A stretch of DNA of 64,000 nucleotides, taken from NCBI RefSeq assembly GCF_003030345.1, contig NZ_CP028158.1, forward strand, positions 7,068,001 through 7,132,000, read 5' to 3'. The notes beneath the pieces are model-generated. The model had not been told where the DNA came from. It saw only the letters and a program-made list of their open reading frames with translations, and searched no databases. Shown piece by piece: positions 45,511 to 63,825 of this stretch (positions are counted from its first letter, which is position 1; each line of letters begins with the position of its first letter). Made by a program: the position numbers and the translations under genes. This stretch comes from Plantactinospora sp. BC1 (GTDB lineage Bacteria > Actinomycetota > Actinomycetes > Mycobacteriales > Micromonosporaceae).

Positions 45511-46518
45511 TCACTCCTTGCTGCTGAAGGCGGCGTCGAAGGCCGCGCTCGGGGCGTCGAAGGCGAGCCGGCGGACGAACTGCAACGCCTCGGGCGCCCC
45601 GACCAGCCGGTCCATCCCGGCGTCCTCCCACTCGATCGAGATCGGGCCGTCGTAGCCGATCGCGTTCAGCGCCCGGAACGAGTCCTCCCACGGCACGTCG
45701 CCGTGCCCGGTCGAGACGAAGTCCCAGCCCCGGCGCAGGTCCGCCCAGGGCAGGTGGGACGAGAGCCGGCCCCGCCGCCCGTCCCCGGTACGCACCTTCG
45801 CGTCCTTGCAGTCGACGTGGTAGATCCGGTCGGCGAAGTCGAAGATGAAGTTCACCGGGTCGAGTTCCTGCCAGACGAAGTGCGACGGGTCCCAGTTCAG
45901 CCCGAACGCCGGCCGGTGCCCGATCGCCTCCAGGGTCCGCCGGGTCGTCCAGTAGTCGTACGCGATCTCGCTCGGGTGCACCTCGTGCGCGAACCGCACC
46001 CCCACCTCGTCGAAGACGTCGAGGATCGGGTTCCACCGGTCGGCGAAGTCCTGGTAGCCCTTCTCGATCATCGACGGCGGGACCGGCGGGAACATCGCCA
46101 GGGTGTGCCAGATCGACGAGCCGGTGAACCCGACGACGGTCTTGACGCCGAGCTTCGCCGCCGCCCGCGCGGTGTCCTTGATCTCCTCGGCGGCCCGCTG
46201 CCGGACCCCTTCCGGCTCCCCGTCGCCCCAGATCCGGGCCGGCAGGATGTCCTGGTGGCGCTCGTCGATCGGGTGGTCGCAGACCGCCTGCCCGACCAGG
46301 TGGTTGGAGATCGTCCAGACCTTGAGGTTGTACTTGGCCAGCGTCTGGCGCTTGCGGTCGACGTACGAGTCGTCGGCGAGCGCCTTGTCGACCTCGAAGT
46401 GATCACCCCAGCAGGCGATCTCCAGCCCGTCGTAGCCCCACTCCGAGGCGAGCCGGCACACCTCCTCGAACGGTAGGTCGGCCCACTGGCCGGTGAAGAG
46501 CGTGATGGGTCGCGCCAT
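45511..46518 (-). CDS. Sugar phosphate isomerase/epimerase-like TIM barrel
   Basis: 335 residues, AP-endonuclease-2/xylose-isomerase-like fold: [47 protein letters not shown] (metal ligand Glu), [23 protein letters not shown], and [25 protein letters not shown]. The metal-binding Glu, Asp, His and Glu positions look intact. Such enzymes sit in 3-keto-sugar and inositol catabolism. The neighbours (ThuA/DUF1080, dehydrogenase, Gfo/Idh, sugar-binding protein) fit that theme. ATG start, with GGGAG-type site upstream. Confidence 0.88.
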
Positions 46519-49120: not shown

Positions 49121-52012
49121 TCAGGGCAGGGTCCACTTCTGGTTGGCGGCGCCGGCTATGCAGTCCCAGAGGTGCACGTTCTGGCCGTCGGCGGAGCTGT
49201 TGTCGGAGACGTCCAGGCACTTGGCCGAGCCGGCGTTGCGCAGCGAGCCGTCGGCCTGCGGGGCCCAGTTCTGGGCGGCGGTGGAGTTGCAGGTCCAGAG
49301 CTGGATCTTGGTGCCGTTGGCGGTGCCGGCGCCGGAGACGTCCAGACACTTGCCGAGGGTACGCAGGGTCTGGCCGTTCCGGGTCCAGGTCTGGTGAGCC
49401 GATCCGGTGCAGCTCCAGATCTGCGCCTGGCTGCCGTCGGCGGTGCCGCCGCCCTCGATCTCCAGGCACTTTCCGGCCAGCCCGACGATCGGGCCGGTGC
49501 CGCCGCCCCCACCGGAGCTGCCGGTGTTGACGGTGAAGGCGTCCACGTCGTAGAGGGCGCCGGTGCCGGAGCCGGCGAAGGTCAGGTACATCGTGGTGGT
49601 GCCGGCCGGCGGGTTGCTTATCGTGCCGGTGACGGTGGTGAAGGTGTCCCAGCCGCCGGTGACCGGGACGGTGGCGCTGCCCAGTACGGTGCCGGTGGCC
49701 GAGCCGGCCCGGAGCTGGATGGTGCCGCCGGCCCCGGCCGACGAGACCCGGGCGCTGAACGAGGTCGCGTTCGCCAGCCGGTACGGCGTGAAGGCGATCC
49801 AGTCCCCGTTGTTGATGTCACCGACGGTCTGGCCGCCCTCGGCGGCGGTCTTGGCGAACTTGTTCACCCCGGACGAGGTCTCGTAGTGCTCGGCCTGCCG
49901 GCGCTTCGGGGTCAGCTCGTGCTGGCTGTGCGTGGTCAGCCCGCCCCGGTCGGTGTACTCCGCGTCGAAGATCGGGAAGATGTTCGCCGCGTCGTCGTGC
50001 TCGCCGTCGACCGGGATGGTGATGGTGCCGGAGCAGCCGGTGGCCGTGGTGATCAGGTGGCCGTGGCTGTCGTGCCCGAGGACGTAGTTCATCTTGACCC
50101 GGGAGCAGTCGATCGTGCCGTCCTCGGGGTCGCTGACGGTGATCGAGAACGGTACCGCGTCCCCGAAGGCGACGAGCTGCCCGGCGGCCGGGGCGGTGAT
50201 GGTCACCGTCGGCGCGGTGTTGCCGACCCCGATGGTGACGCTGGCGGTGCCGGTGGCGCCGGCCGGATCGCGTACGGTCAGCGTCGCCGTGTACGTGCCG
50301 TTCGCGCTGTACGTCTTCGTCGGGTTCGCCGCCGTCGAGGTGCTGCCGTCGCCGAACGCCCAGGAGTAGCTCAGCGCCCCGCCCTCCGGGTCGGACGAGC
50401 CGGCCGAGGAGAAGTTGACGGTCAGCGGGGCGACCCCGGAGGTCGGGTTGCCGCTGGCCACCGCGATCGGGGCCCGGTTGCCGCCGCCGACGTAGTCGAA
50501 GCGGTAGAGCGCCGAGTTGGCGTCCCCGTTGAAGTAGCCGGTGCCGTAGTCGAGCACGTAGTACGAGCCGTCCGGCCCGAACGCCGAGTCCATCACCTGC
50601 TTGCCGACCCACGGGAAGGTGTCGATGGTGCCGGGCGAGCCGTCGGTGTTCAGGTGGATCGGCTTGATCCAGCCCCGGCCGAACTCGGTGGCGAAGAACT
50701 GGCCGTCGAAGGACTGCGGGAACTTGGTGGCCGACGGGTTCGACGCGTTGTACCGGTAGACCGGGCCGGCCATCGGCGACTCCGAGCCGCCGCCGAAGGC
50801 TGGCGGGGTGCCGGCGTCACCGGCGTACCGGATCCAGGCCGGGCGGGCGGCCGGCAGGGTGGACTGGCCGGTGTTCCGGAACGAGTTGTTGGTCGGCCCG
50901 CCGGTGCAGTTGTACTTCGCCCCGCTCGGCCCGTCCGGGAAGGTCCACTCGTTGTACGTCTCGGTGCTGGTGTTCGTGCCGGTGCAGTACGGCCAGCCGT
51001 AGTTGCCGGGCGAGGTGACCCGGTTGAACTCGACCTGCCCGCTCGGGCCCCGGTTGGCGTTGGTGGAGCCGGCGTCCGGGCCGTAGTCGCCGACGTAGAC
51101 GTGCCCGGTTGCCTTGTCGACGCTCATCCGGAACGGGTTGCGGAAGCCCATCGCGTAGATCTCGGGCCGGGTGTTCGCGGTGCCGGGCGCGAAGAGGTTC
51201 CCGCTCGGGATCGAGTACGTCCCGTTGGCGTTCACCCTGATCCGCAGGATCTTGCCCCGCAGGTCGTTGGTGTTGCCGGCCGAGCGCTGTGCGTCGTACG
51301 CCGGATAGCGGTTGGTCCGCTCGTCGATCGGCGCGTAGCCGGCGGACTCGAACGGGTTGGAGTCGTCCCCGGTGGAGAGATAGAGGTTGCCGGCGGCGTC
51401 GAAGTCGATGTCGCCGCCGACGTGGCAGCACATCCCCCGGTCCGCCGGCACGTCCAGCACCGTCACCTGGCTGCCCATGTTGAGGGTGAAGTCGGCGTTC
51501 AGGGTGAACCGGGAGAGCCGGTTGACCCCGGCGAAGGGCGCGAACTGCGCCGCCGTGCCGGTGGCCGGCGCGTCACCGGCCGGGGTGGAGAGCGGCGGGG
51601 CGTAATAGAGGTAGATCTGCCGGTTGGTGGCGAAGCCGGGGTCGACGCCGACGCCCTGCAACCCCTCCTCGTCGTGGGTGTAGACCGGCAGCGTGCCGAG
51701 CACCGCCGTGTTGCCGGCCGCGTCGGTGCGGCGCAGCGTGCCGTTGCGGGCGGTGTGCAGCACGGAGCGGTCCGGCAGCACCGCGATGGTCATCGGCTCG
51801 CCCACCTCGGCGACGCCCCGGGCCAGGGTCACCTGCTGGAAGTCGGCGGCGTTGATCGGGTGTGCCGCGGCGGGGGTGGCCGGGGCGATCACCGCCGGGA
51901 GCGTGGTGGCGGCCAGCAGCAGCGCCGCACCGGAGGCCCACCGCCGTCGTCTCGAAGGGGCTCGACCGGCCAGCGGCCGGCGGGGCGGATGTGGATGGTC
52001 GGTGGAAGACAT
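49121..52012 (-). CDS. Secreted glucose/sorbosone dehydrogenase with PKD, CBM6 and ricin domains
   Basis: 963 residues. The signal region (about 1-50, with RRRRWASG before the hydrophobic core) is followed by a PQQ-type beta-propeller (about 55-500; THDEEGLQGVGVDPGF, MCCHVGGDIDFDAAGNLYLSTGDD, IYAMGFRNPFRMSVD). A PKD domain (about 515-600), a linker with GHDSHGHL, a CBM6 (about 705-835) and a ricin trefoil (about 845-963) follow. The domain set is often seen beside ThuA proteins. It probably oxidises sugar ends or surface polysaccharide. ATG 52012 with GGGAG upstream is chosen. Confidence 0.9.
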   Translation of the reverse strand: MSSTDHPHPPRRPLAGRAPSRRRRWASGAALLLAATTLPAVIAPATPAAAHPINAADFQQVTLARGVAEVGEPMTIAVLPDRSVLHTARNGTLRRTDAAGNTAVLGTLPVYTHDEEGLQGVGVDPGFATNRQIYLYYAPPLSTPAGDAPATGTAAQFAPFAGVNRLSRFTLNADFTLNMGSQVTVLDVPADRGMCCHVGGDIDFDAAGNLYLSTGDDSNPFESAGYAPIDERTNRYPAYDAQRSAGNTNDLRGKILRIRVNANGTYSIPSGNLFAPGTANTRPEIYAMGFRNPFRMSVDKATGHVYVGDYGPDAGSTNANRGPSGQVEFNRVTSPGNYGWPYCTGTNTSTETYNEWTFPDGPSGAKYNCTGGPTNNSFRNTGQSTLPAARPAWIRYAGDAGTPPAFGGGSESPMAGPVYRYNASNPSATKFPQSFDGQFFATEFGRGWIKPIHLNTDGSPGTIDTFPWVGKQVMDSAFGPDGSYYVLDYGTGYFNGDANSALYRFDYVGGGNRAPIAVASGNPTSGVAPLTVNFSSAGSSDPEGGALSYSWAFGDGSTSTAANPTKTYSANGTYTATLTVRDPAGATGTASVTIGVGNTAPTVTITAPAAGQLVAFGDAVPFSITVSDPEDGTIDCSRVKMNYVLGHDSHGHLITTATGCSGTITIPVDGEHDDAANIFPIFDAEYTDRGGLTTHSQHELTPKRRQAEHYETSSGVNKFAKTAAEGGQTVGDINNGDWIAFTPYRLANATSFSARVSSAGAGGTIQLRAGSATGTVLGSATVPVTGGWDTFTTVTGTISNPPAGTTTMYLTFAGSGTGALYDVDAFTVNTGSSGGGGGTGPIVGLAGKCLEIEGGGTADGSQAQIWSCTGSAHQTWTRNGQTLRTLGKCLDVSGAGTANGTKIQLWTCNSTAAQNWAPQADGSLRNAGSAKCLDVSDNSSADGQNVHLWDCIAGAANQKWTLP

Positions 52013-52368
52013 GGTCGTGCACTCCCGTCCTGAACAGTTGCGTACAGGCAGGGCGCTCGCCGTCGCGCCAGATGCCGTCGGGGTGGATCTCCGCCCGGGG
52101 GCCGCCGTTCCCGCCAAGCCGCGACCGTGGACCGGCATGGGCACACCGGTACGTCGATCGCTGTCGTGGGCAAACCGCGCCGTCGGTTACCTCGACGTAA
52201 CAACTCTGAGCTGTGCTCGACACAGTAATTTCCATGTGTTGATGTGTCCATACCTTCTGCCACGTCAACATGAACTTTTGTCGACACGGCGAAAAGTTGC
52301 GCCGTCGGTGATCAACCGGCCGCGCTGGGTACCACTGTGGAGCCCGGCCGCTCCCCCGTCGTCGGCGG
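52013..52368. other. Region between the dehydrogenase start and the Ebo-operon end
   Basis: The dehydrogenase promoter should lie here; 52190-52300 is richer in A/T (TAATTTCCATGTGTTGATG). A weak GC hairpin near 52320-52365 may end the Ebo transcript. No gene was recognised. Confidence 0.4.
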
Positions 52369-53436
52369 CTACAACTGCCGGTCGACGGTCTCGGCGGCCA
52401 GCGCGGCGAGCACGCCCGCGGTCTCCTCGCCGAGTGGCGTGTCGGCGAGCGCGGCCAGCGCCGCGTCGACACGTACCTTGATCATCTGCTCGATCCGGTC
52501 CAGCGCGCCGGTGTCGACGATGATCGCCCGCAGCTCGGCCGCACCCTCCGGATCCAGCTCCGGATTGCCGAAGAGCGCCTTCAACCGCTGCGCCTGGGCC
52601 CGGTCCGCACTCCCCCGGGCCAGCGCCATCATCACCGTCGGCTTCCCCTCCCGCAGATCCTCCAGAATGGACTTGCCGGTCAACGCCGGGTCGCCGAAGA
52701 CCCCGAGCACGTCGTCCCGGAGCTGGAACGCGTCGCCGAGCGGGTCACCGAAGGCGGCCAGCGCCGCCAGCAGCTCCGGCGAGCCCGCCGCCAGCGCGGC
52801 GCCGATCTGCAACGGTCGGGTCACCGTGTAACGGGCGGCCTTCATCCGAATCACCGTCAGGGCGCTCGCCACCGAGCCGTCCCCCACCCCGGAGACCAGA
52901 TCCAGGTACTGCCCGGCGATCACCTCGGTACGCATCGTCGCGAAGACGCCGTACCCCCGGTGCACCTCCTCGGGGGTGAGCCCGCACTCGTGGAAGAGCT
53001 GGTCCGCCCAGGCGGCGCAGAGATCACCGCAGAGCAGCGCGGTACTGCGCCCGTAGGAGGCCGGGTCGCCGCGCCAGGCCGACCGGGCGTGCAGGTCGGC
53101 GAAGAGCCGGTGCACCGAGGGCTCGCCCCGGCGCCGGTCACTGCCGTCCATGATGTCGTCGTGGATCAGCGCGAAGGCGTGGAACAGCTCCAGCGCGGCG
53201 GCGGCGGCCACGATCGGGGTACCGTCCACGCCACCGGCGGCCCGCCAGCCCCAGTAGCAGAAGAGCGGGCGCAGCCGCTTGCCGCCGGCCAGCACGAACC
53301 GGTGCAGGGTGGTGAAGACCCCCCGGGGTGCGCCGTCCGGCCAGTCCGGGTCCTGCCGGTCGAGGAAGGCGACGAGCTGGGCGTCGAAGCGCTTCCGTAG
53401 TTCCCCGAGATCCACCTCCGGCACGGTCGCCGTCAT
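52369..53436 (-). CDS. Polyprenyl (probably geranylgeranyl-type) diphosphate synthase
   Basis: 355 residues. GGKRLRP (51-57), first Asp-rich motif DDIMD (93-97), and a second in QLRDDVLGVFGD. Phe88 is five residues before the first motif, a feature linked to C20 product length in type-I GGPP synthases; chain length is thus inferred. It would make the prenyl diphosphate used by the UbiA enzyme in the same operon. The ATG overlaps the preceding phosphatase stop as ATGA. It is the last gene of the operon. Confidence 0.88.
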   Translation of the reverse strand: MTATVPEVDLGELRKRFDAQLVAFLDRQDPDWPDGAPRGVFTTLHRFVLAGGKRLRPLFCYWGWRAAGGVDGTPIVAAAAALELFHAFALIHDDIMDGSDRRRGEPSVHRLFADLHARSAWRGDPASYGRSTALLCGDLCAAWADQLFHECGLTPEEVHRGYGVFATMRTEVIAGQYLDLVSGVGDGSVASALTVIRMKAARYTVTRPLQIGAALAAGSPELLAALAAFGDPLGDAFQLRDDVLGVFGDPALTGKSILEDLREGKPTVMMALARGSADRAQAQRLKALFGNPELDPEGAAELRAIIVDTGALDRIEQMIKVRVDAALAALADTPLGEETAGVLAALAAETVDRQL

Positions 53437-54902
53437 GACCGCCCTCCCCCGGCCGAGGCGGGATCGACACCGGCCGGACCGGCGGCGGCGGGGACGGCAC
53501 CGGCCGGACCGGCGGCGGCGGAATCGACACCGGCGAGGCGGAGCAGCAGGCTCTTGACCTCGGTGGCCTGGTAGCGGTCCCGGGCCGCCGACCGGTCCGA
53601 ACAGATCAGCACCGGACCGTCCGCCGGGTCGGCCGGCAGCCGGCCGTGCGAGCCGCGTACCGCCCGGGCGCCGGCATCCAGCCCCACCACGCTCATCAGG
53701 TAGCGCATCCCGAGCTTCTTCCGGGCCAGCGCCACCGCCGCCCGGCGCTTCGCCGCACCCGGCGCGGCCGGGTCGAAGAAGAGCTCCGCCGGGTCGTACC
53801 CGGGTTTGCGGTGGATCTCCACCAGCCGGGCGAAGTCCGGGGCCCGGGCGTCGTCGAGCCAGTAGTAGTAGCTGAACCAGGCGTCCGGCTCGGCGACCAG
53901 CACCAGCTCGCCGGCCCGCTCGTGGTCCAGCCCGTGCGCGGCCTTGCCGGCGGCGTCCAGCACCTCGGCGACCCCGGACAGCCCCGCGCAGAGCTTCGCC
54001 ACCGCCGGCACGTCGGCCGGATCCTTCACGTAGACGTGCGCGATCTGGTGGTCGGCGACCGCGAACGCCCGGGACGTCCACGGGTCGAGATACTCCATCC
54101 CGTCCTGGGTGTAGACCCGGAGCAGCCCCTCGGCCCGGAGCAGCCGGTTCACGTCCACCGGCCGGCTCGCCTCGGTGATGCCGTACTCCGACAGCACCAC
54201 CACGGTCGCGTTCCGGGCGGCCGCCGCGTCCAGCAGCGGGCCGAGTACCCCGTCCAGTTCGCTCGCGGCGGCCGCCGCCTGCGGAGACGACGGGCCGAAG
54301 CGTTGCAGGTCGTAGTCGAGGTGCGGGACGTAGACCAGGGTCAGGTCCGGGTTCTTCTCCGCCATGATCTGCTCGGCGGCCCGGCAGATCCACCGCGACG
54401 ACGGCAGCCCCGCCCCCGGCCCCCAGTACGTGAAGAGCGGGAACCCGCCCAGCTTCCCGGTCAGCTCGTCGTGCAGCTCCGGCGGGTCGGTGTAGCAGTC
54501 GGGCTCCTTGCGCCCGTCGGCGTAGTAGATCGGCCGGGGCGTCACCGTCCAGTTCACGTCGGCGCCCATCGCGTACCACCAGCAGACGTTCGCCACGGTG
54601 TAGTCCGGGCGCTCCCGGCGGGCCGCCTGCCAGACCTTCTCCCCACCCATCAGCGCGTGGTGCTGCCGCCAGAGGAAGACCTCGCCCAGCTCCCGGAAGT
54701 ACCAGCCGTTGCCGACGATGCCGTGCTCGGCCGGGAGCGCCCCGGTGAGCAGGGTCGCCTGCGCCGAGCAGGTCACTGCCGGCAGCACGGTGCCGAGTTC
54801 GGCCCGGCAGCCGGCGTCGGCCACGGCGCGCAGCCGGGGCATGTGGGCGAGCAGTCGGGGGGTCAGCCCGACCACGTCGATCACGACCAGTGGGTCAGCC
54901 AT
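53433..54902 (-). CDS. Alkaline-phosphatase-superfamily phosphodiesterase/pyrophosphatase
   Basis: 489 residues of the nucleotide-pyrophosphatase/phosphodiesterase type. Asp9 (VVIDVVG) and nucleophile Thr44 (LPAVTCSAQATLL) are at the start; YVPHLDYDLQRFG and VVLSEYGITE, then DHQIAHVYV supply other metal ligands. It lacks a signal peptide, so it should act inside the cell. In Ebo clusters such an enzyme occurs near EboE and may remove a phosphate or pyrophosphate group from the pathway compound. It overlaps EboE by eight bases. The C-terminus is Ala/Gly/Pro-rich repeats. Confidence 0.85.
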   Translation of the reverse strand: MADPLVVIDVVGLTPRLLAHMPRLRAVADAGCRAELGTVLPAVTCSAQATLLTGALPAEHGIVGNGWYFRELGEVFLWRQHHALMGGEKVWQAARRERPDYTVANVCWWYAMGADVNWTVTPRPIYYADGRKEPDCYTDPPELHDELTGKLGGFPLFTYWGPGAGLPSSRWICRAAEQIMAEKNPDLTLVYVPHLDYDLQRFGPSSPQAAAAASELDGVLGPLLDAAAARNATVVVLSEYGITEASRPVDVNRLLRAEGLLRVYTQDGMEYLDPWTSRAFAVADHQIAHVYVKDPADVPAVAKLCAGLSGVAEVLDAAGKAAHGLDHERAGELVLVAEPDAWFSYYYWLDDARAPDFARLVEIHRKPGYDPAELFFDPAAPGAAKRRAAVALARKKLGMRYLMSVVGLDAGARAVRGSHGRLPADPADGPVLICSDRSAARDRYQATEVKSLLLRLAGVDSAAAGPAGAVPAAAGPAGVDPASAGGGRS

Positions 54903-56127
54903 CGTGCCTCCTCGGCGCGGAAACGGGGGCGGCGGCCGGGCCGGCGGGCGAGGCGGAGTCCTCGGTCAGTCCGAGCGCGACCAGTTCGTCGCGGGCGAAG
55001 GCCAGTTCGGCGGCGATCCCGCCGGCCAGCTCCGCGTCCGATCCCGGGCGCTGCCCGGCCGGCAGCACCCCCCAGGTGTACGTCTCGACGTCCAGGTGGT
55101 CGCAGCCGGCGACCGGCCCGGCGAACAGCTCCCGCAGCGCGTCCCGGAGCACCGGCACGGTGGACTCCAGCGGCGCGGCGGGTACGGCGTGCAGCGGTAC
55201 GTGGTAGTGCACCCGCCAGGCGCCGGGCAGGTTGGCGTCCAGCGCCGCGTCCAGGTCGTCGGCGGCGTGTGCCGGGTCGGCCGGGTCGGCGGCCCCTCCG
55301 CAGGCGTCGGTGCGGGTCTGGTGCAGGAAGCGCGGTTCGACGTACCCGCGCAGCACGTCGGCGGCGGCGACCGGGTCGGCGGCGGCCAGCGCGGCCGAGA
55401 CCTGCACCTTCACCACCGGCAGCCCGGCGGCGCGGAGCCGGCCGAGCGCCTGGGCCGGATCCTCCCAGGCGCAGGCGAGGTGGGCCAGGTCGAGGCAGAT
55501 GCCGAGCCGGTCGGTGTCCACCCGGGACAGTGTGGCGACCGCCTGGCCGGTCGACTCGACCACGCAGCCCGGTTCCGGCTCGAAGCCGACCCGGACCGCC
55601 CGGCCGGTACGCCAGGCGATCTGGGTCAGCCCGGCGGCCAGCTCGTCCAGCACCCGGGCCGCCCGGTCGGCCTGGCGCCGCTCCCAGGGCTGGCGCCAGG
55701 CCAGCGGCAGGGTGGAGACCGAGCCCCGGACGGCGTCGTCGGGAAGCAGGTCGACCAGTACGGTGGCCAGGTTCAGGGTGTAGACCAGCCGCTCCCGGGT
55801 GGTCCAGTCCGGGTGGTAGACGGCCTGCTTCACCACCGGCGCGTGGAAGGACTGGTAGGGGAACCCGTTCAGGGTGACCACCTCCAGCCCGCGCGCGGCC
55901 AGCTCGGCGCGCAGCCGCCGCCGGGTCTGCGGGTCGGCGGCGAGCCCGGCCGCCACCGGCGCGGCCAGCCACAGCCCCAGTCCGAGTACGTCGGCGCCGA
56001 GCCGTTCCCGGATCGGCACCGCGTACGTGTCGAGCTGTCCCAGCACCCCGGCCAGGTCCTCGGCCGGATGCACGTTGGTGCAGTAGCTCAGGTGCACCAG
56101 TTGCCCGTCGGCGTGCCGCAGCCGCAT
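54895..56127 (-). CDS. eboE: EboE, metabolite traffic TIM-barrel protein
   Basis: 410 residues. The N-terminus HLSYCTNVHPAEDLAGVLGQL and GLWLAAPVAAGL are EboE hallmarks; the TIM barrel continues with LNGFPYQSFHAPVVKQAVYHPDW, VGFEPEPGCVVES, LGICLDLAHLACAWEDP, and DVETYTWGVLP. The family was named from cyanobacterial and proteobacterial ebo clusters, where the set is needed to get a metabolite such as the scytonemin monomer to the periplasm. Its own reaction is not known. It shares TGATG with TatD before it and overlaps the phosphatase after it. Confidence 0.88.
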   Translation of the reverse strand: MRLRHADGQLVHLSYCTNVHPAEDLAGVLGQLDTYAVPIRERLGADVLGLGLWLAAPVAAGLAADPQTRRRLRAELAARGLEVVTLNGFPYQSFHAPVVKQAVYHPDWTTRERLVYTLNLATVLVDLLPDDAVRGSVSTLPLAWRQPWERRQADRAARVLDELAAGLTQIAWRTGRAVRVGFEPEPGCVVESTGQAVATLSRVDTDRLGICLDLAHLACAWEDPAQALGRLRAAGLPVVKVQVSAALAAADPVAAADVLRGYVEPRFLHQTRTDACGGAADPADPAHAADDLDAALDANLPGAWRVHYHVPLHAVPAAPLESTVPVLRDALRELFAGPVAGCDHLDVETYTWGVLPAGQRPGSDAELAGGIAAELAFARDELVALGLTEDSASPAGPAAAPVSAPRRHDG

Positions 56128-56993
56128 CAGCTACCGCCCCGCAGGATCGAGTTCCCCTCGAAGGTGCCGGGCGGCGCCGCGCCGGAGGACTCGTCCGCGT
56201 CTTCGAGGTCCAGCCGGCCGGACTGGCCGTAGAACTCCACCGGGTTGCGCCAGAGCACCCGGTCGACGTCGTCGTCGTCGAATCCGGCGGCCAGCATCGC
56301 CTCACCGGTGGCCCGGGTCAGCAGCGGATCCGACCGGCCCCAGTCGGCGGCCGAGTTGACCAGCATCCGCTCGGTGCCGTACTTCCGGAGCAGCTCGACC
56401 ATCCTCGGCGGCGACATCTTCGTCTCCGGATAGATGGAGAAGCCGAGCCAGCAGCCGGTGTCCCGGACCAGCGGCACCGTCACCTCGTTGAGGTGGTCGA
56501 TCACCACCCGGCCGGGGTCGAGCCCGGACTCGGCGACCACCGCGAGGCTGCGCTCGGTGCCCCGGGCCTTGTCCCGGTGCGGGGTGTGCACCAGCGCCGG
56601 CAGCTCGTGCTCGACCGCCAGGGCGAGCTGGGCGGCGAAGACCTCGTCCTCCTCCGGCGTCATCGAGTCGTAGCCGACCTCGCCGACCGCCACCACGCCG
56701 TCCTTGTCCAGATAGCGGGGCAGCAGGTCGAGCACCTCGCGGCAGCGCGGATCGTTGGCCTCCTTCGGGTTCAGCGCGATCGTGGCGTGGTGCCGGATGC
56801 CGAACTGGCCGGCCCGGAACGGCTCCCAGCCGACCAGCGAGTCGAAGTAGTCGACGAAGGAGGCGGCGCTGGTCCGGGGTTGGCCGAGCCAGAACGCCGG
56901 CTCCACCAGGGCGCGTACCCCGGCGGCGGCCATCCGTTCGTAGTCGTCGGTGGTCCGCGAGGTCATGTGGATGTGCGGGTCGAAGATCCTCAT
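56127..56993 (-). CDS. TatD-type metal-dependent hydrolase of the Ebo cluster (EboB-like)
   Basis: 288 residues. DPHIHM gives His7 and His9 of the amidohydrolase/TatD fold; VGEVGYDS, VHTPHR, VIDHLNE and NSAADWGRSD supply the other metal ligands (Glu, His, His, Asp). TatD proteins are phosphoesterases or nucleases; in ebo clusters one of this type is the EboB member. It starts with ATG overlapping the EboA stop (TGATG), and its stop overlaps the EboE start in the same way. The natural substrate is unknown. Confidence 0.85.
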   Translation of the reverse strand: MRIFDPHIHMTSRTTDDYERMAAAGVRALVEPAFWLGQPRTSAASFVDYFDSLVGWEPFRAGQFGIRHHATIALNPKEANDPRCREVLDLLPRYLDKDGVVAVGEVGYDSMTPEEDEVFAAQLALAVEHELPALVHTPHRDKARGTERSLAVVAESGLDPGRVVIDHLNEVTVPLVRDTGCWLGFSIYPETKMSPPRMVELLRKYGTERMLVNSAADWGRSDPLLTRATGEAMLAAGFDDDDVDRVLWRNPVEFYGQSGRLDLEDADESSGAAPPGTFEGNSILRGGS

Positions 56994-57655
56994 CACGCCT
57001 CCTCCGCGCCCGGCCCGGTCGGGGTCCCCGACCGGTCGAGCGTGCTCAGTCGATCCAGCAACGCGGTCGCGTCGGCCGGCATCTCCCGGCCGGCCGCCCG
57101 GCGCTCGTCGGCGAAGCCGGCCAGCATGCCGGCCAGCTCGGCGTCGGCCCGCTCGTCGAGCCTGTGCACGGCGGCCAGCGGGATGCCGGTGAAGACGCAC
57201 TTGAGCACCGCCTGCCGCCAGGCGGCCTGGTCGAGCCGGTCGGCGTACGGGCCGAGGGCGGCGGCGACCAGCCGGGTGTCGTTGGTCCGGATCGCGTCGT
57301 GCAGCAGCGGCACCCCGGCGTCGCCGACCGGCAGCAGCGGCAGGGCCCGGAGTACCGCCCGCTTCTCGGCCGCGTCGCCCTCGCGGTAGCGGGCCTCGAC
57401 CTGGCCGGGCAGCTCGGCCGGGGGCAGCGCACCGAGCAGCAGTACCCGGGCGGCGTCGTCGGCGGACCAGTGCGGCAGGTCGGGCAGGGGTGCCCGGCCA
57501 CACCTGCGGCCGGCCGCGGCGAAGAGCCGGCCGATCGCGGACGGTTCGGCCCCGACCCGACGTAACGCCTCGGCCAGCCACGGGTCGGGCGGCCGCCCGT
57601 CGGGTACGGCCAGCAGTGCCGCCCGCAGTCGTTCCAGTTCCGGTTCCGGTTCCAT
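56993..57655 (-). CDS. eboA: EboA-domain protein
   Basis: 220 residues, helical. Characteristic parts are WSADDAARVLLLGALPPAELPGQVEARYREGDAAEKRAVLRALPLLPVGDAGVPLLHDAIRTND and CVFTGIPLAAVHRLDERADAELAGMLAGFADERRAAGR, which match EboA. EboA is the signature of the operon; its molecular role is not established. It begins 80 bases after the TIM-barrel gene, the only real gap within the operon, and is coupled to TatD by TGATG. Confidence 0.88.
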   Translation of the reverse strand: MEPEPELERLRAALLAVPDGRPPDPWLAEALRRVGAEPSAIGRLFAAAGRRCGRAPLPDLPHWSADDAARVLLLGALPPAELPGQVEARYREGDAAEKRAVLRALPLLPVGDAGVPLLHDAIRTNDTRLVAAALGPYADRLDQAAWRQAVLKCVFTGIPLAAVHRLDERADAELAGMLAGFADERRAAGREMPADATALLDRLSTLDRSGTPTGPGAEEA

Positions 57656-57735
57656 CCGGTCCTCCCCAGTCTTTCCGGTGTGGATGGTGGTCGCGGTCCC
57701 CCCGGTGGTGGTGCTTCGTCAGTCGGGTGTGCCGG

Positions 57736-58707
57736 TCACCGCCCCCGGTCCGGCACGGCGCTGCCCCGCGCCTCGGTGAGCCCGGCCTCGGCGGCGGCGC
57801 CCCGGAGAAAGTCGATCGACCGCGCCGCCACGGTGGGGGCGGCGTGCGAGTGCCGGGGCAGCTCGACGGCGACCAGCCCGGCGTAACCGGCCTCGGCCAG
57901 CGCCCGCAGTACGGGCGGGAAGTCGATCTCTCCGGTGCCGAACTCCAGGTGCTCGTGCACGCCCCGGCGCATGTCGTCGATCTGCACGTTGACCAGGTGC
58001 GGGGCCACCTGCGCGACGCAGTCCGGCACCGGGTGGGGCTCCAGGCACCGGCAGTGCCCGATGTCGAGGGTGATGCCGAAGCCGGGCGGGGCGCCCAGGG
58101 CCTCCCGCAGCCGCCACCAGTCGGCGATTTCCGCCACCAGCATGCCCGGCTCCGGCTCGAAGCCGAGCGGCATCCCGGCGGCGTCCGCGACCTCGACCAG
58201 TTCGGCGCAGCCGGCGACGAGCCGGTCCCAGGCGGCCGCCGGTTCGACGTCGGCCGGTCGTACCCCGGACCAGAAGGAGACCGCCTCGGCGCCGAGGTCG
58301 GCGCCGATCGCGACGGCCCGGCGGAGGAACTCGACCCGCAGCGCGTTGTCGTCGTGCAGCAGCGTCGGGGCGTGCTTGTGCCAGGGGTCGAGCAGGTAGC
58401 GGGCCCCGGTCTCGATCACCACGCCGAGGCCGTGCGCGGCGAGGCTCCGGCCGACCGCCGCCACCCGGGCCGCCAGGTGCGGGCCGAACGGGTCCAGGTG
58501 GTCGTGGTCCAGGGTCAGCGCCACGCCCCGGTAGCCGAGGTCGGCGATGACCCGCAGCGCGTCGTCGAGGCGGTGGTTGGCGAAGCCGTTGGTCCCGTAC
58601 CCGAACCGCAGCCCGGGCAGCGCGGCGGCGCTCATGTCGGGGACACCAGTCGGGCGAGCCGTCGCCCGCTGACCCGGTGCGGCGGCGGACCCGGCACCGG
58701 CGCTCAT
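57736..58707 (-). CDS. Sugar phosphate isomerase/epimerase-like TIM barrel of the Ebo operon
   Basis: 323 residues from ATG 58707, which overlaps the UbiA stop (ATGA); the alternative ATG 58635 gives 299 residues. Barrel motifs: ADLGYRGVALTLDHDHLDPFG, GARYLLDPWHKHAPTLL, VSFWSGV, LGFEPEPGMLVAE, FGITLDIGHCRC, NVQIDDM, and GEIDFPPVLRALAEAGYAGLVAVELPRHSH. Metal ligands Glu, Asp, His and Glu are visible. The extra 24 residues of the long form come from a duplicated junction (58631-58741). It resembles EboE, so the operon has two related barrels. Reaction unknown. Confidence 0.85.
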   Translation of the reverse strand: MSAGAGSAAAPGQRATARPTGVPDMSAAALPGLRFGYGTNGFANHRLDDALRVIADLGYRGVALTLDHDHLDPFGPHLAARVAAVGRSLAAHGLGVVIETGARYLLDPWHKHAPTLLHDDNALRVEFLRRAVAIGADLGAEAVSFWSGVRPADVEPAAAWDRLVAGCAELVEVADAAGMPLGFEPEPGMLVAEIADWWRLREALGAPPGFGITLDIGHCRCLEPHPVPDCVAQVAPHLVNVQIDDMRRGVHEHLEFGTGEIDFPPVLRALAEAGYAGLVAVELPRHSHAAPTVAARSIDFLRGAAAEAGLTEARGSAVPDRGR

Positions 58708-58741
58708 GTCGGCGACACCAGTCGGGCGAGCCGTCGCCCGA
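58631..58741. repeat. Duplicated UbiA-end / isomerase-start junction
   Basis: Bases 58631-58669 and 58703-58741 match at 38 of 39 positions, 72 bases (24 codons) apart. Each copy includes the last codons of UbiA and the ATG of the next gene. The duplication keeps the isomerase in frame and adds 24 residues to its N-terminus. Confidence 0.9.
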
Positions 58742-59582
58742 TCGGGGCGGCGGCGGCCACCGCGACGCCGAGCAGCGCGGCGCCGGTCCGGGCGACCAGC
58801 GCGCCCTGTAGCGCAGGCAGGCCGGTGATGCCGGCGCCGACCGCGGCCCGGACCCGGGACGCCTGCGGGTCGGCCGCCACCCGGGCCTGCGCGCTGCCGT
58901 AGTGCAGGCCGTACCAGCCGGCGAGGGCGGCCGGGACCAGGGCGCCCCAGCCGGCCCGGTGGGCCGGGTCGGCGGGGCCGGGCCGGGTTACCGCGGCGGC
59001 GGCCACCGCGGCGGTACCGGCCAGGGTCGCCGCCGGCAGCGCCCGGGTCGCCCCGGAGACCTCTCGCCGGGAGAGTTCGGTGACCGTGTACGTGTGCGCG
59101 GCCACCGTCAGCGCCGCCGGTACCGCCCGGGCCACCCGGCCCCCGCTCGCGCCGAGCAGCACGTCCAGCCCCCGACAGGCGGCCATCACCGCCGGCCCGG
59201 CCGGGGTGTTCTTGGCCCACAGGTCGTACGCCCAGACCGCGCCGGCCAGCGGCACCGCCACGGCCAGCGCCCGGCGACCGCCGGCCAGCCCGGCGAGCCC
59301 GATCCCGGCGGCGGTGAGCCCGGCCGAGACGCCGAGGGCGAACCCCGGCGAGACCCGGCCGCTCGGGATCGGCCGCTCGGGCCGCTCCCGCGCGTCGAGT
59401 TCGCGGTCCGCGAGGTCGTTGGCGGCCATCCCGGCCCAGTAGAGCAGCACCGATGCCCCGGCCAGCCCCGGCACCCGACGGTCCAGCGCGTCGGCGGCGG
59501 CGGCCCCGGCCAGCACGTCCCCGGGGACGGAGAGCGCGGCCGGCGCCCGGACCAGCTCGGTCAGGTCACGCAGCGACGGCAT
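58704..59582 (-). CDS. UbiA-family prenyltransferase (EboC-like)
   Basis: 292 residues, about eight membrane helices. The Mg-diphosphate motif is NDLADRELD (55-63) with RPERPIPSG after it; a second conserved patch is YDLWAKNTPAG (119-129). UbiA enzymes attach a prenyl chain to a ring or sugar acceptor in the membrane; in ebo clusters the member is EboC, and related actinobacterial proteins are called SCO3242 family. It overlaps the cyclase gene before it by 17 bases and the isomerase ATG by four. The donor may come from the polyprenyl synthase at the operon end. Confidence 0.88.
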   Translation of the reverse strand: MPSLRDLTELVRAPAALSVPGDVLAGAAAADALDRRVPGLAGASVLLYWAGMAANDLADRELDARERPERPIPSGRVSPGFALGVSAGLTAAGIGLAGLAGGRRALAVAVPLAGAVWAYDLWAKNTPAGPAVMAACRGLDVLLGASGGRVARAVPAALTVAAHTYTVTELSRREVSGATRALPAATLAGTAAVAAAAVTRPGPADPAHRAGWGALVPAALAGWYGLHYGSAQARVAADPQASRVRAAVGAGITGLPALQGALVARTGAALLGVAVAAAAPIGRRLARLVSPT

Positions 59583-60735
59583 CCGGGTCCCCCGAAGTCG
59601 GCTCGGCGTCGAGTTCCCGGACGAAGGCGCGCAGCGTGGCCCACTGTTCGGCGAGGGCGTGCGGCACCTCGCCGAGCGGATCCTTGAAGAAGAACGCCAG
59701 TTCGGTCAGCGGGCCGGCCCGGCCGGCCCGGTGCGCGGCGGCGGTCAGCCGGGCCAGGTCGAGCACCAGGGGTGCGGCGAGCGAGGAGTCGCAGCCGTGC
59801 CAGGTGAACTCCATCCGCATCGGGGTGCCGAGGAAGCCGGCGAAGGTGACCAGGTCCCAGGCGGTCTTGAAGTCGCCGATGTCGTCGACGTACTCGATCC
59901 GGGTGTTGCCCTGCGGGACGTAGCCGAGGGTCTCGCCGAGTACCCGCTGCTTGCTGGCGGACTTGGCCGCGTTCGCCGCCGGTTCGGCCAGGTTGGCGCC
60001 GTCGCCGCCGCCGAGCAGGTTGGTGCCGGACCAGCTCCGTACCCGCAGGTTCCGCATCGCGAACATCGGGGCGAGAACCGACTTCACCAGCGTCTCGCCG
60101 GTCTTGCCGTCGTGCCCGGCGTACGGGAGGCCGGCCCGGCGGGCCAGTTCGGCGAGGGCGGGGAGCCGGGCGCCGGTGGACGGGGTGAAGTCCACATAGG
60201 AGCAACCGGCGGTGAAGGCGGCGTAGGCGTAGGTGGAGCTGACCGGCAGTGGGCTGCCGTGGGCGAGCGCGGCGTCCAGTTCGGCGAGGCTGGCGTGTGC
60301 CGGGTGCGCCTGCGGGGCCGGCTCGGTCGAGGAGACGTTCACCACCACCACCCGGTCGAGCCGGTGCCGTTCGCGGAATCCGGTCAGGTCGGCGACGATC
60401 GTCTCGACGGCGGCCGCCTGTGGGCCACCGGTCGGCGCCGGCCGCAGCTCGGCCTCGACCGCACCGAACTCCTCGGCCAGCGCCGCGACCAGCCGGGCCG
60501 GCAGTACGCCCGCCTCGGCCAGCGCCTCGGCCTTCTTCACCAGCGGGGTGGTGGCGATGTCGTGCCCGCCGAAGACCAGGTCGGCCAGGGCCGGCAGGGC
60601 GGCGCTACGCAGGGCCGGAAGCTCGGTCACGCAGCCTGTCGGCTCGGCCAGCCCGGCCCGCAGGGCCAGCGCCCCGACCGTACTGGTCACGGCGACCGAA
60701 CCACGCCCGCCAACCAGCCAGACACCCGTACGCAT
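59566..60735 (-). CDS. Inositol-3-phosphate synthase family protein (sugar-phosphate cyclase)
   Basis: 389 residues from ATG 60735, which has GGAGGGAGGAG upstream. NAD site VWLVGGRGSVAV (GGRGS 9-13), core GHDGKTGETLVKS (207-219), SWSGTNLLGGGDGANLAEP (234-252) and VDDIGDFK. These match MIPS, which converts glucose 6-phosphate to myo-inositol 3-phosphate with NAD; the core Lys residues look present. The family often has a separate housekeeping copy, so this one may supply a pathway cyclitol. It leads the eight-gene operon and overlaps UbiA by 17 bases. Confidence 0.88.
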   Translation of the reverse strand: MRTGVWLVGGRGSVAVTSTVGALALRAGLAEPTGCVTELPALRSAALPALADLVFGGHDIATTPLVKKAEALAEAGVLPARLVAALAEEFGAVEAELRPAPTGGPQAAAVETIVADLTGFRERHRLDRVVVVNVSSTEPAPQAHPAHASLAELDAALAHGSPLPVSSTYAYAAFTAGCSYVDFTPSTGARLPALAELARRAGLPYAGHDGKTGETLVKSVLAPMFAMRNLRVRSWSGTNLLGGGDGANLAEPAANAAKSASKQRVLGETLGYVPQGNTRIEYVDDIGDFKTAWDLVTFAGFLGTPMRMEFTWHGCDSSLAAPLVLDLARLTAAAHRAGRAGPLTELAFFFKDPLGEVPHALAEQWATLRAFVRELDAEPTSGDPDAVAA

Positions 60736-62742: not shown

Positions 62743-63825
62743 TCAGAACCCGAGCTTGGCGTACTGGCTCGCGTTCTCCTTCGTGATCGTCTCGGAGGCC
62801 AGAGTGATCTCCTTCGGCACCTGCAGCTCGACCAGGTCGGACATGCCCTTGCCCTGGCCGATGAGCCGGGCCAGCGAGATCGCCGACGAGGCCATCGAGG
62901 GGCTGTAGGTGACGGTTGCCTTCAGGACGCTGTTGTCGGCCGCGATCGCGTCGATGGCGGCCTTGGAGCCGGCGCCGCCGACCATGATGAACTCGGAGCG
63001 GTTGGCCTGCTTGATCGCCGCGAGTACCCCGATGCCCTGGTCGTCGTCGTGGTTCCACAGCGCGTCCATCTTGGGCAGCGCCTGGAGCAGCTGCGACGCC
63101 TCGCTCTGGCCGGTGTCGGCGGTGAACCGGGCGGCGCGGCGGTTCTGCACCTTGAAGCCGTAGACGGCCAGTTCGGCGGCGAAGCCGGCGGACCGCTCCT
63201 TGGTCAGCTCCAGCTCGTCCATGCCGGCGATCTCGCCGATGATCGGGTTGGCGATGCCCTTGGCCTTCATCTGCTCGCCGATGTAGCGGCCGGCCGCGAC
63301 GCCCATGCCGTAGTTGTCGCCCTTGATCTGGAGCCGGTACGCCAGCGCGTCCGGGAACGCCCGGTCCAGGTTGACCACCGGGATGCCGGCCTTCATCGCC
63401 TCCAGCCCGGAGGCGTTCAGCTCCTTGCCGTCGTGCGGCAGCATGACGATCACGTTCGGCTTCTGCGAGATCAGCGTGGAGAGCGCGGCCCGCTGGGCGG
63501 CGGCGTCCGCGCCGGCGGCCACCGTCTTGAACTCCACGTCCGAGTAGACCTTCGCCTGCGCCTCGGCGTTCTTGGTGATGGCGGCGAGCCAGCCGTGGTC
63601 GGCGGCCGGGGCGGAGAAGCCGATGACCACCCGCTGGCCCGGCACGCTGTTCGGGTTGGCGGCGTTGTCCGCCTCCTTGACCTGCTCGTTCCCGCCGCCA
63701 CCGGAGCCGGTCTCGTTGCTGGTGCAGGCGGTGAGCAGGGCACCGGCGCCCACCGCCGCCCCGCCGAGCAGCAGCCGGCGGCGGGACAGGTCACGCACCG
63801 GCCGGAGCGGATCGTGCTGGGTCAT
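62743..63825 (-). CDS. Sugar ABC-transporter substrate-binding lipoprotein (Peripla_BP_4 type)
   Basis: 360 residues. A twin-arginine-like signal (SRRRLLLGGAAVGAGAL) and lipobox LTAC with Cys34 anchor it outside. The type-I periplasmic-binding fold shows VVIGFSAPAADHGWLAAITKNAEAQAK, IVMLPHDGKELN, GIPVVNLDR, GDNYGMGVAAGRYIGEQM, and LWNHDDDQGIGVLAAIKQA, as in ribose/inositol/rhamnose-type binding proteins. The exact sugar is not predictable. It precedes Gfo/Idh and follows a permease-like end in the same direction. Confidence 0.9.
   Translation of the reverse strand: MTQHDPLRPVRDLSRRRLLLGGAAVGAGALLTACTSNETGSGGGGNEQVKEADNAANPNSVPGQRVVIGFSAPAADHGWLAAITKNAEAQAKVYSDVEFKTVAAGADAAAQRAALSTLISQKPNVIVMLPHDGKELNASGLEAMKAGIPVVNLDRAFPDALAYRLQIKGDNYGMGVAAGRYIGEQMKAKGIANPIIGEIAGMDELELTKERSAGFAAELAVYGFKVQNRRAARFTADTGQSEASQLLQALPKMDALWNHDDDQGIGVLAAIKQANRSEFIMVGGAGSKAAIDAIAADNSVLKATVTYSPSMASSAISLARLIGQGKGMSDLVELQVPKEITLASETITKENASQYAKLGF

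What the first reader, a model, noticed from the sequence alone, without database searches (positions are those of the whole stretch)
52369..60735. Eight-gene Ebo-like operon with a MIPS-type cyclase, UbiA prenyltransferase and polyprenyl synthase
Eight leftward genes are joined by overlaps (17 bases, ATGA, TGATG, TGATG, 8 bases, ATGA) with one 80-base gap. EboA, EboE, a TatD hydrolase and UbiA mark it as an ebo-type cluster, known in cyanobacteria (scytonemin export to the periplasm) and pseudomonads. Here no EboD (dehydroquinate-synthase-like) is present; an inositol-phosphate-synthase homolog leads the operon instead, and a prenyl-diphosphate synthase ends it. Both EboD-like and MIPS-like enzymes are sugar-phosphate cyclases, so the cyclase may have been swapped. 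I infer a prenylated cyclitol-type product made at the membrane.
Basis: partly seen in the sequence, partly recalled or inferred. Interest (0 to 1): 0.88.

Follow-up and report, generated by a model that had tools for sequence, protein, structure and literature searches.

The report
Ebo-like operon with swapped cyclase
Eight overlapping bacterial genes form a variant of the widespread but poorly understood "ebo" pathway in which one ring-forming enzyme has been replaced by an unrelated one, and such operons lie next to a secreted sugar-oxidising type of enzyme more often than chance allows, which gives a new lead on what the pathway is for.

Summary
The cyclase swap is supported: of 217 genomes of the phylum, EboE is in 11 and ebo-type MIPS in the same 11, with EboD matches at background level there; of 80 EboE loci, 78 from other phyla, 64 have EboD, 0 MIPS, 16 neither. 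Catalytic residues are kept in 16 of 16. MIPS types also occur on a Gemmatirosa and three haloarchaeal plasmids. Unexpectedly, ebo operons of both kinds often lie beside secreted-looking GSDH-family beta-propeller dehydrogenases: 8 of 11 genomes (0.24 expected) and 13 of 61 loci (about 1.3 expected). Nostoc ebo works with the periplasmic beta-propeller ScyE (PMC6282210, PMC4870267). The operon is common in the window's family (EboE in 99 of 150). New variant of a known kind; product unknown, a prenylated cyclitol plausible but untested.

The parts
59566..60735 (-). MIPS-type cyclase (inositol-phosphate synthase homologue), first gene of the operon
   Evidence: PF07994/PF01658; closest solved relative Archaeoglobus MIPS 1u1i, E 6e-68; K258, K262, K290, K351, D316 kept
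58704..59582 (-). UbiA-superfamily prenyltransferase, SCO3242 family / EboC-like
   Evidence: NF045897 376 bits over cut-off 260; NF035940 EboC 126 bits under cut-off 250; NDxxDxxxD motif kept
57736..58707 (-). TIM3: xylose-isomerase-like TIM barrel that accompanies ebo-type MIPS
   Evidence: PF01261; orthologues beside MIPS
56993..57655 (-). EboA domain protein, all-helical model
   Evidence: NF035938 164 bits; AlphaFold2 mean pLDDT 93; no PDB match at E<=0.001
56127..56993 (-). EboB, TatD-like metal-dependent hydrolase
   Evidence: PF01026; H7, H9, E105, H136, H167, D217 identical in 82 of 82 homologues aligned
54895..56127 (-). EboE, TIM-barrel metabolite traffic protein
   Evidence: NF035939 411 bits over cut-off 250
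53433..54902 (-). EboF, type I phosphodiesterase/nucleotide pyrophosphatase family
   Evidence: PF01663 219 bits; conserved with EboF of the other variants
52369..53436 (-). short-chain polyprenyl diphosphate synthase, family-specific addition to the operon
   Evidence: PF00348; present in window, L028 and 15 of 20 family loci
49124..52144 (-). neighbour: secreted-looking GSDH-family beta-propeller dehydrogenase with PKD, CBM6 and ricin domains
   Evidence: PF07995 114 bits; adjacency to ebo. Signal sequence judged by eye, no predictor run
46902..49049 (-). neighbour: ThuA + 3-keto-disaccharide hydrolase + CBM6 + ricin protein
   Evidence: PF06283 271 bits, PF06439 131 bits
45514..46518 (-). 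neighbour: second sugar-isomerase-like TIM barrel
   Evidence: PF01261 154 bits; homologue in L028
61516..62688 (-). neighbour: Gfo/Idh/MocA oxidoreductase directly upstream
   Evidence: PF01408; 15 of 20 family loci
62746..63825 (-). neighbour: ABC sugar-binding lipoprotein
   Evidence: PF13407; 10 of 20 family loci

Best explanation
This is a MIPS-type variant of the ebo operon. SHOWN by sequence: EboD (sugar-phosphate cyclase) is absent and an intact, archaeal-type MIPS plus a partner TIM barrel (TIM3) stands in its place, while EboB, EboC and EboF keep their most conserved residues. INFERRED: MIPS closes glucose 6-phosphate to an inositol phosphate; TIM3 (with the upstream Gfo/Idh dehydrogenase where present) turns it into a cyclitol equivalent to the one EboD makes; EboC joins this polar head to an isoprenoid supplied by the co-encoded synthase; EboB, EboE and EboF trim or convert the phosphate/sugar part; EboA scaffolds. 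The resulting membrane-anchored prenyl-cyclitol serves an extracytoplasmic process carried out with a secreted beta-propeller protein (GSDH here, ScyE in scytonemin producers), rather than being an antibiotic of its own. My odds for the parts: cyclase substitution 0.85, extracytoplasmic beta-propeller partner 0.65, prenylated cyclitol 0.5.
For: Swap: EboE in 11 of 217 genomes of the phylum; MIPS at 306 bits or more to the window's MIPS in exactly the same 11, next best 216 bits; best EboD match in those 11 genomes 145 bits/40%, against 198-538 bits, median 404, in the 64 of 80 EboE loci that match the same EboD query; 64 of 80 loci with EboD, 0 with MIPS, 16 with neither. NAD and Lys/Asp residues kept in 16 of 16. 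TIM3 lies beside MIPS in the bacterial ebo loci with MIPS and in three further MIPS plasmid loci without ebo genes. Conserved core residues across both cyclase types and haloarchaea. Partner: PF07995 within 6 kb of ebo in 8 of 11 genomes (expected 0.24, P 2e-12); a strong GSDH hit within 1.6 kb of an ebo gene in 13 of 61 loci of other lineages with at least four ebo families (expected about 1.3, P 1e-9, scaled from 34 genomes). GSDH is the commonest Pfam family among sampled neighbours in both sets (7 of 66; 15 of 115). ScyE is a periplasmic beta-propeller-clan protein, and the ebo mutants tested and the scyE mutant of Nostoc punctiforme all accumulate scytonemin monomer (PMC4870267; PMC6282210; passages).
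Against: No metabolite or enzyme activity is known for this variant. The only EboC relatives assayed in papers that I saw farnesylate quinoline acids such as 8-HQA; no cyclitol was tried as far as the parts read show (PMC9235831, parts 1-2 of 4). 3 of 11 genomes show no GSDH near ebo (in one the contig ends), 48 of 61 other-lineage loci have no strong GSDH hit, and of 84 loci of all kinds with at least four ebo families 54 have neither a GSDH nor a ScyD/E-like neighbour. Three Streptomyces plasmid copies sit in antibiotic-type clusters instead. Haloarchaeal MIPS loci keep the EboD-type EboC residues, against a simple pocket-cyclase match. L023 has TIM3 but no MIPS, and two haloarchaeal MIPS of the same clade (L145, L153) have no TIM3 or ebo genes beside them. 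In Nostoc the scyE mutant lets the monomer reach the periplasm and the ebo mutants do not, so the two phenotypes differ in that respect.
Confidence: 0.5

Rival explanations
1. Redox-carrier reading: the ebo product is a lipid-soluble electron carrier or cofactor (the cyclitol dehydrated to a hydroquinone-like ring and prenylated) that takes electrons from secreted beta-propeller dehydrogenases.
For: GSDH adjacency with both cyclase types; cytochrome c families are the next commonest neighbour families after GSDH in the EboD set (6 and 6 of 115, perhaps the same proteins); PqqC found in only 1 of 11 ebo-bearing genomes although all 11 have GSDH-family genes; the prenyltransferase is of the superfamily that also makes quinones (the latter recalled).
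Against: No dehydratase activity shown; PF07995 proteins may not need such a carrier or may use PQQ from outside; Nostoc ebo mutants retain monomer in the cytoplasm, which reads as an export defect; of the PQQ genes only PqqC was searched.
Confidence: 0.2
2. Dedicated secondary metabolite: the operon makes a prenylated cyclitol natural product, a part of or partner to antibiotic clusters.
For: Streptomyces plasmid copies beside an aromatic prenyltransferase (L015), phosphopantetheinyl transferases and a SARP regulator (L016), and FAD monooxygenase, glutamine synthetase and amidase genes (L018); a lone EboE inside a type II polyketide cluster (L017); SCO3242/SCO3243 counted in the CDA cluster (PMC3610822, passages).
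Against: The same block sits beside chemically unrelated clusters and, in the window's family, mostly beside sugar-oxidation genes, so one dedicated product is unlikely.
Confidence: 0.15
3. Sugar or 3-keto-sugar catabolic locus: MIPS, TIM3 and EboE handle imported or oxidised sugars and the prenyltransferase is incidental.
For: Sugar-binding protein, Gfo/Idh, ThuA, 3-keto-disaccharide hydrolase and GSDH all on the same strand.
Against: The UbiA gene is retained in 11 of 11 loci fetched from other genomes of the phylum and in 20 of 20 family loci; in four of those 20 (L162, L165, L172, L173) none of the seven neighbour profiles hits within the 20 kb fetched.
Confidence: 0.1
4. Ordinary second inositol synthase for phosphatidylinositol or mycothiol, next to ebo by chance.
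For: MIPS homology is clear.
Against: The genome has another MIPS (G000:C1:4102258); linkage in 11 of 11 genomes; the actinobacterial ebo MIPS form their own clade (100/98).
Confidence: 0.03

Closest known systems
ebo operon, ABCDEF type (Yurchenko et al. 2016, PMC5133447, passages; Klicki et al. 2018, PMC6282210, passages)
   Same: EboA, EboB, EboE, EboF and a UbiA-family EboC homologue in one operon
   Different: No EboD; MIPS and TIM3 instead; extra polyprenyl synthase; the word 'inositol' does not occur in either paper's main text
SCO3242 family prenyltransferase / SCO3243 MIPS of Streptomyces coelicolor (NF045897; PMC3610822, passages)
   Same: The UbiA protein belongs to this NCBI family; a MIPS gene bears the next locus number
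   Different: There counted as part of the CDA antibiotic cluster, with no function shown in the passages seen; here in a sugar-oxidation neighbourhood. I did not fetch the S. coelicolor locus itself
Actinobacterial EboA fused to a xylose-isomerase-like domain (noted in PMC5133447, passage)
   Same: A xylose-isomerase-like TIM barrel just before EboA
   Different: Here separate genes, 80 bases apart; the passage does not link it to MIPS
Haloarchaeal plasmid clusters L144, L146, L152 (this work)
   Same: MIPS, UbiA, TatD, EboF-like phosphodiesterase, TIM barrels
   Different: No EboA hit and no EboE over cut-off (EboE model tested on L152 only); two TIM barrels distantly related to TIM3
Archaeoglobus fulgidus MIPS (1u1i)
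   Same: All catalytic residues checked; best solved match
   Different: Archaeal enzyme with a long branch in the tree; context here is ebo

Membership tests
ebo operon (EboA-EboF) | EboE | tested here: met
   NF035939 411 bits, cut-off 250
ebo operon (EboA-EboF) | EboA | tested here: met
   NF035938 domain 164 bits, cut-off 50; the stricter NF035937 EboA_family is not met, 80 bits, cut-off 320
ebo operon (EboA-EboF) | EboB (TatD-like) | tested here: met
   PF01026 47 bits, cut-off 27; metal-site residues identical in 82 of 82
ebo operon (EboA-EboF) | EboC by NCBI's model | tested here: not met
   NF035940 126 bits, cut-off 250; the sister family NF045897 is met at 376 bits
ebo operon (EboA-EboF) | EboD | tested here: not met
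   No EboD hit in the window; best hit in the genome 141 bits, 35%
ebo operon (EboA-EboF) | EboF | tested here: met
   PF01663 219 bits, cut-off 23; tree with other EboF
MIPS (inositol-phosphate synthase) | Both Pfam domains | tested here: met
   PF07994 172 bits (cut-off 25), PF01658 107 bits (cut-off 27)
MIPS (inositol-phosphate synthase) | Catalytic Lys/Asp and NAD-site Gly | tested here: met
   Aligned to 1u1i; that these residues are catalytic is recalled
MIPS (inositol-phosphate synthase) | Actinobacterial housekeeping Ino1 model | tested here: not met
   TIGR03450 42 bits, cut-off 638
MIPS (inositol-phosphate synthase) | Makes inositol phosphate from glucose 6-phosphate | not testable with these tools
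   Needs an enzyme assay; a relative in the PDB is named five-membered-cyclitol-phosphate synthase (6k96), so the product cannot be taken for granted
SCO3242 family prenyltransferase | NF045897 over cut-off | tested here: met
   376 bits, cut-off 260

The most novel reading that the evidence does not exclude
Ebo operons make a previously unknown membrane electron carrier or cofactor, a prenylated ring derived from a cyclitol, that serves secreted beta-propeller dehydrogenases across bacteria and halophilic archaea. Two unrelated cyclases (EboD, posited to use a heptulose phosphate, and MIPS+TIM3 from glucose 6-phosphate) supply the ring. The 'metabolite traffic' phenotype in cyanobacteria would then reflect a failure of extracytoplasmic oxidation.
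Probability: 0.17. Interest if true: 0.88.

Novelty: new variant of a known kind. Interest (0 to 1): 0.62.

Why it matters
In the ebo papers that I saw, the product of the operon is unknown although it is found from cyanobacteria to algal plastids. Two natural solutions to one step, with otherwise conserved enzymes, narrow the chemistry: the shared intermediate must be reachable from EboD and from MIPS+TIM3. Actinobacteria such as Streptomyces coelicolor make this genetically accessible. The recurrent neighbourhood with GSDH-family dehydrogenases offers a concrete, testable partner outside scytonemin synthesis.

Tried and rejected
Rejected: second housekeeping MIPS by chance (linkage in 11 of 11 genomes). 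Rejected: MIPS as a dead homologue (residues kept). Rejected: the swap being confined to Actinomycetota (Gemmatirosa L022 and haloarchaea). Considered and softened: two independent swaps in bacteria. In trees Gemmatirosa EboE, EboF and EboC group with a Gemmatimonadota contig that carries EboD (L035, 4.6 kb), but the AU test rejects a single MIPS clade only for EboF (p 0.019), not for EboE (p 0.35) or EboC (p 0.10). An EboD elsewhere in Gemmatirosa is not excluded: its chromosome is in no collection that I searched, and one search listed 30 of 115 plasmid records, none of them Gemmatirosa. Considered and dropped: that the EboC pocket follows the cyclase, since haloarchaeal MIPS loci keep the EboD-type residues and L035 (EboD) pairs with Gemmatirosa.

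Corrected on checking: a first chance test used 34 genomes that I had picked after the GSDH hits were known and that held all 13 hits (0.71 expected, P 3e-14). The fair base is all 61 other-lineage loci with at least four ebo families; 27 of their genomes were not searched, so the expectation (about 1.3) is scaled. My odds did not need changing.

Led nowhere: PDB comparison of EboA (no match at E<=0.001); PDB sequence search with TIM3 (generic xylose-isomerase-like family); megablast of a stretch of L034 near its EboD against plasmids (no match); search for papers joining UbiA, MIPS, TatD and haloarchaea (none). Papers: ten literature searches, of which I saw the listings. The EDB-cluster paper of Zhou, Vergis and Mahmud 2022 is not held and was seen only through a review's passages (PMC9655573), which says that the cluster gives indoles in E. 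coli.


Full report
1. The observation. No EboD is present. The window's phylum is taken to be Actinomycetota because its nearest EboE relatives on plasmids are Streptomyces and Nonomuraea, 64-67% identical; no name was given and I did not test the family name.

2. Is the block real and conserved? In 217 genomes drawn from the phylum, 11 have EboE. Besides the window I fetched 11 loci from the other ten (two from G128). Hits to MIPS-UbiA-TIM3-EboA-EboB-EboE-EboF are present in 10 of these 11; L023, the second copy in G128, lacks MIPS. In the window's own family EboE is over cut-off in 99 of 150 genomes; of 20 loci that I picked from different genomes there, 19 carry all seven genes and 15 the polyprenyl synthase. 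L164 lacks hits to MIPS, EboA, EboB and EboF; I did not examine why. So the operon is common in its family.

3. Is the cyclase swapped? A whole-genome search with the window's MIPS gave 306 bits or more in exactly the 11 genomes with EboE, and at most 216 bits elsewhere in the 217. In those 11 genomes the best match to an EboD is 145 bits and 40% identity; in the 64 of 80 EboE loci that match the same query it gives 198-538 bits, median 404. Of these 80, 78 lie outside Actinomycetota; 64 have EboD within the DNA fetched, 0 have MIPS, and 16 have neither, among them short contigs and lone EboE genes, including the two Actinomycetota. In no fetched locus do MIPS and EboD occur together. Outside the phylum MIPS-type clusters occur on a Gemmatirosa plasmid (L022: TIM3, MIPS, EboC, EboF, EboB and a divergent EboE, no EboA hit) and, without EboA or EboE hits to my profiles, on plasmids of Halobaculum, Natronococcus and Halocatena; Haladaptatus has the same genes except MIPS in the stretch seen.

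4. Is the MIPS intact? Aligned to Archaeoglobus MIPS, two NAD-site glycines and the residues matching D225, N255, D261, K274, K278, K306, D332 and K367 are identical in 16 of 16 actinobacterial ebo MIPS; in the window protein K258, K262, K290, D316 and K351. That these are the catalytic residues is recalled. One position next to the site (Archaeoglobus D259) is Gly in 16 of 16 actinobacterial ebo enzymes and Asn in the 28 of 28 other homologues aligned. The tree puts actinobacterial ebo MIPS in one clade (100/98) joined with haloarchaeal and Gemmatirosa enzymes (100/98) and, when added, with Archaeoglobus (100/100), apart from the other bacterial MIPS included. The genome has another MIPS at 4.10 Mb.

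5. How often was the cyclase exchanged? In the EboE tree (101 rows) the actinobacterial operon loci form one clade (99) and Gemmatirosa lies among EboD types. Careful trees of EboC and EboF pair Gemmatirosa with L035, a 4.6-kb Gemmatimonadota contig that has EboC, EboD, EboE and EboF, that is, a closely related backbone with a different cyclase. AU tests of a single MIPS clade: EboF p 0.019, EboE p 0.35, EboC p 0.10. A second exchange is therefore likely, not proven.

6. TIM3 as partner. TIM3 orthologues stand beside MIPS in the bacterial ebo loci with MIPS. They also lie about 5 kb from a MIPS gene on plasmids of Methylobacterium, Roseomonas and Hymenobacter without ebo hits; in the two annotated ones the genes between include YcaO and Gfo/Idh, the Methylobacterium record is not annotated. 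Against a fixed pair: L023 has TIM3 without MIPS, and haloarchaeal loci L145 and L153 have MIPS of the same clade with no TIM3 hit. I infer that TIM3 acts on the MIPS product. A chemical reason can be offered: EboD is posited to yield an unphosphorylated cyclitol from sedoheptulose 7-phosphate (PMC5133447, passages), whereas MIPS yields an inositol phosphate, so extra steps are needed to reach an equivalent compound.

7. The conserved remainder. EboB keeps its metal-site residues in 82 of 82 homologues, EboC keeps N, D, D, D of the Asp-rich motif in 80 of 80 rows with a letter there, and EboF has dozens of nearly invariant columns across all types, haloarchaea included (for EboC the numbering there starts at the profile match). 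The EboA model is all-helical, mean pLDDT 93, without a PDB match at E<=0.001; the weak matches include artificial HEAT-like repeat proteins.

8. The neighbourhood. On the same strand lie an ABC sugar-binding protein, a Gfo/Idh oxidoreductase, then the eight genes, then a secreted-looking GSDH/PKD/CBM6/ricin protein (signal judged by eye), a ThuA + 3-keto-disaccharide hydrolase protein and another TIM barrel. L028, another genus of the family, has the same set. Among 20 family loci GSDH is found in 14, ThuA in 15, Gfo/Idh in 15, the sugar-binding protein in 10, in at least two gene orders; in four none of these hits. In the 11 genomes of paragraph 2, 8 have a PF07995 match within 6 kb of ebo (G097 and G150 have none; in G161 the contig ends), against 0.24 expected from 75 matched pieces in those genomes, P 2e-12. 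Of 61 other-lineage loci with at least four ebo families (58 of them with EboD), 13 have a strong GSDH-like hit, all within 1.6 kb of an ebo gene. PF07995 was counted in 34 of those genomes, 160 pieces, chosen by me after the hits were known and including all 13; scaled to 61, about 1.3 loci are expected, P 1e-9. These P values treat genomes as independent, which they are not. Family tallies agree: GSDH is first among 66 sampled neighbours of actinobacterial loci (7) and among 115 sampled neighbours of the other set (15), followed there by two cytochrome c families (6 each). A profile started from a Streptomyces ScyD/ScyE-family protein beside MIPS (L015) finds strong relatives near ebo in three cyanobacterial loci and one more Streptomyces plasmid, and reaches some of the GSDH proteins, mostly weakly. 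Of 84 loci of all kinds with at least four ebo families, 24 have a GSDH hit of 60 bits or more and 30 have that or a ScyD/E-like hit; 54 have neither.

9. Reading. In Nostoc punctiforme every ebo mutant made (eboD was not tested) and the scyE mutant lose scytonemin and accumulate its monomer; in the ebo mutants it stays in the cytoplasm, in the scyE mutant it also reaches the periplasm. ScyE is periplasmic and belongs to the beta-propeller clan (PMC6282210, PMC4870267, passages). The GSDH neighbours suggest that pairing ebo with a secreted beta-propeller protein is general. The best reading is a prenyl-cyclitol, made with either cyclase, that serves an extracytoplasmic step. A bolder reading makes it a redox carrier: only 1 of 11 ebo-bearing genomes has PqqC although all have GSDH-family genes. 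Against it, the Nostoc data read as an export defect, and the EboC relatives assayed farnesylate quinoline acids (PMC9235831). Three Streptomyces plasmid copies lie in antibiotic-type clusters, and S. coelicolor SCO3242/SCO3243 are counted in the CDA cluster (PMC3610822).

10. Novelty. The word 'inositol' is absent from the main text of four papers on ebo (PMC5133447, PMC6282210, PMC6092422, PMC9235831). 'PQQ' and 'propeller' are absent from PMC5133447, PMC6282210 and PMC9235831; PMC6282210 names an L-sorbosone dehydrogenase only as a periplasm marker. PMC9235831 draws Saccharomonospora loci in a figure that is not held, so MIPS may be drawn there. In the listings of ten searches I saw no description of the MIPS variant or of the GSDH link; subscription journals are mostly not held. 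NCBI already names the prenyltransferase family. I therefore rate it a new variant of a known kind.

Noticed in passing
window 58610-58730: A stretch of about 40 bases around the UbiA stop is duplicated in tandem (seen by eye), giving TIM3 two possible ATG starts (58707 and about 58635).
   Followed up: no
L147, L148, L149: MIPS and a TIM3 orthologue occur near each other on plasmids of Methylobacterium, Roseomonas and Hymenobacter without ebo genes, in the two annotated records with YcaO and Gfo/Idh genes between them; perhaps another MIPS-based pathway.
   Followed up: partly
L144, L146, L152, L154: Haloarchaeal plasmids carry a reduced ebo-like cluster (TatD, two TIM barrels, UbiA, EboF-like phosphodiesterase; MIPS in three of four).
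   Followed up: partly
L017; L058, L079, L082, L100, L110: EboE genes without other ebo hits: one inside a type II polyketide cluster, and a separate clade in Proteobacteria and Actinomycetota.
   Followed up: no
L018: The operon lies beside glutamine synthetase, amidase and adenylosuccinate lyase genes; this resembles the diazo genes of kinamycin-type clusters (recalled).
   Followed up: no
L023: Second ebo copy of G128 without MIPS; nearby ORFs look like a FAD-dependent desaturase and an inositol monophosphatase (read by eye).
   Followed up: no
L043, L062: Alphaproteobacterial ebo clusters (EboE, C, A, B, F) with neither EboD nor MIPS hits in the DNA fetched; their cyclase was not located.
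   Followed up: partly
L022 969-1826 and window 45514-46518: A second TIM barrel, 64% identical between Gemmatirosa and the window, flanks both ebo loci.
   Followed up: no
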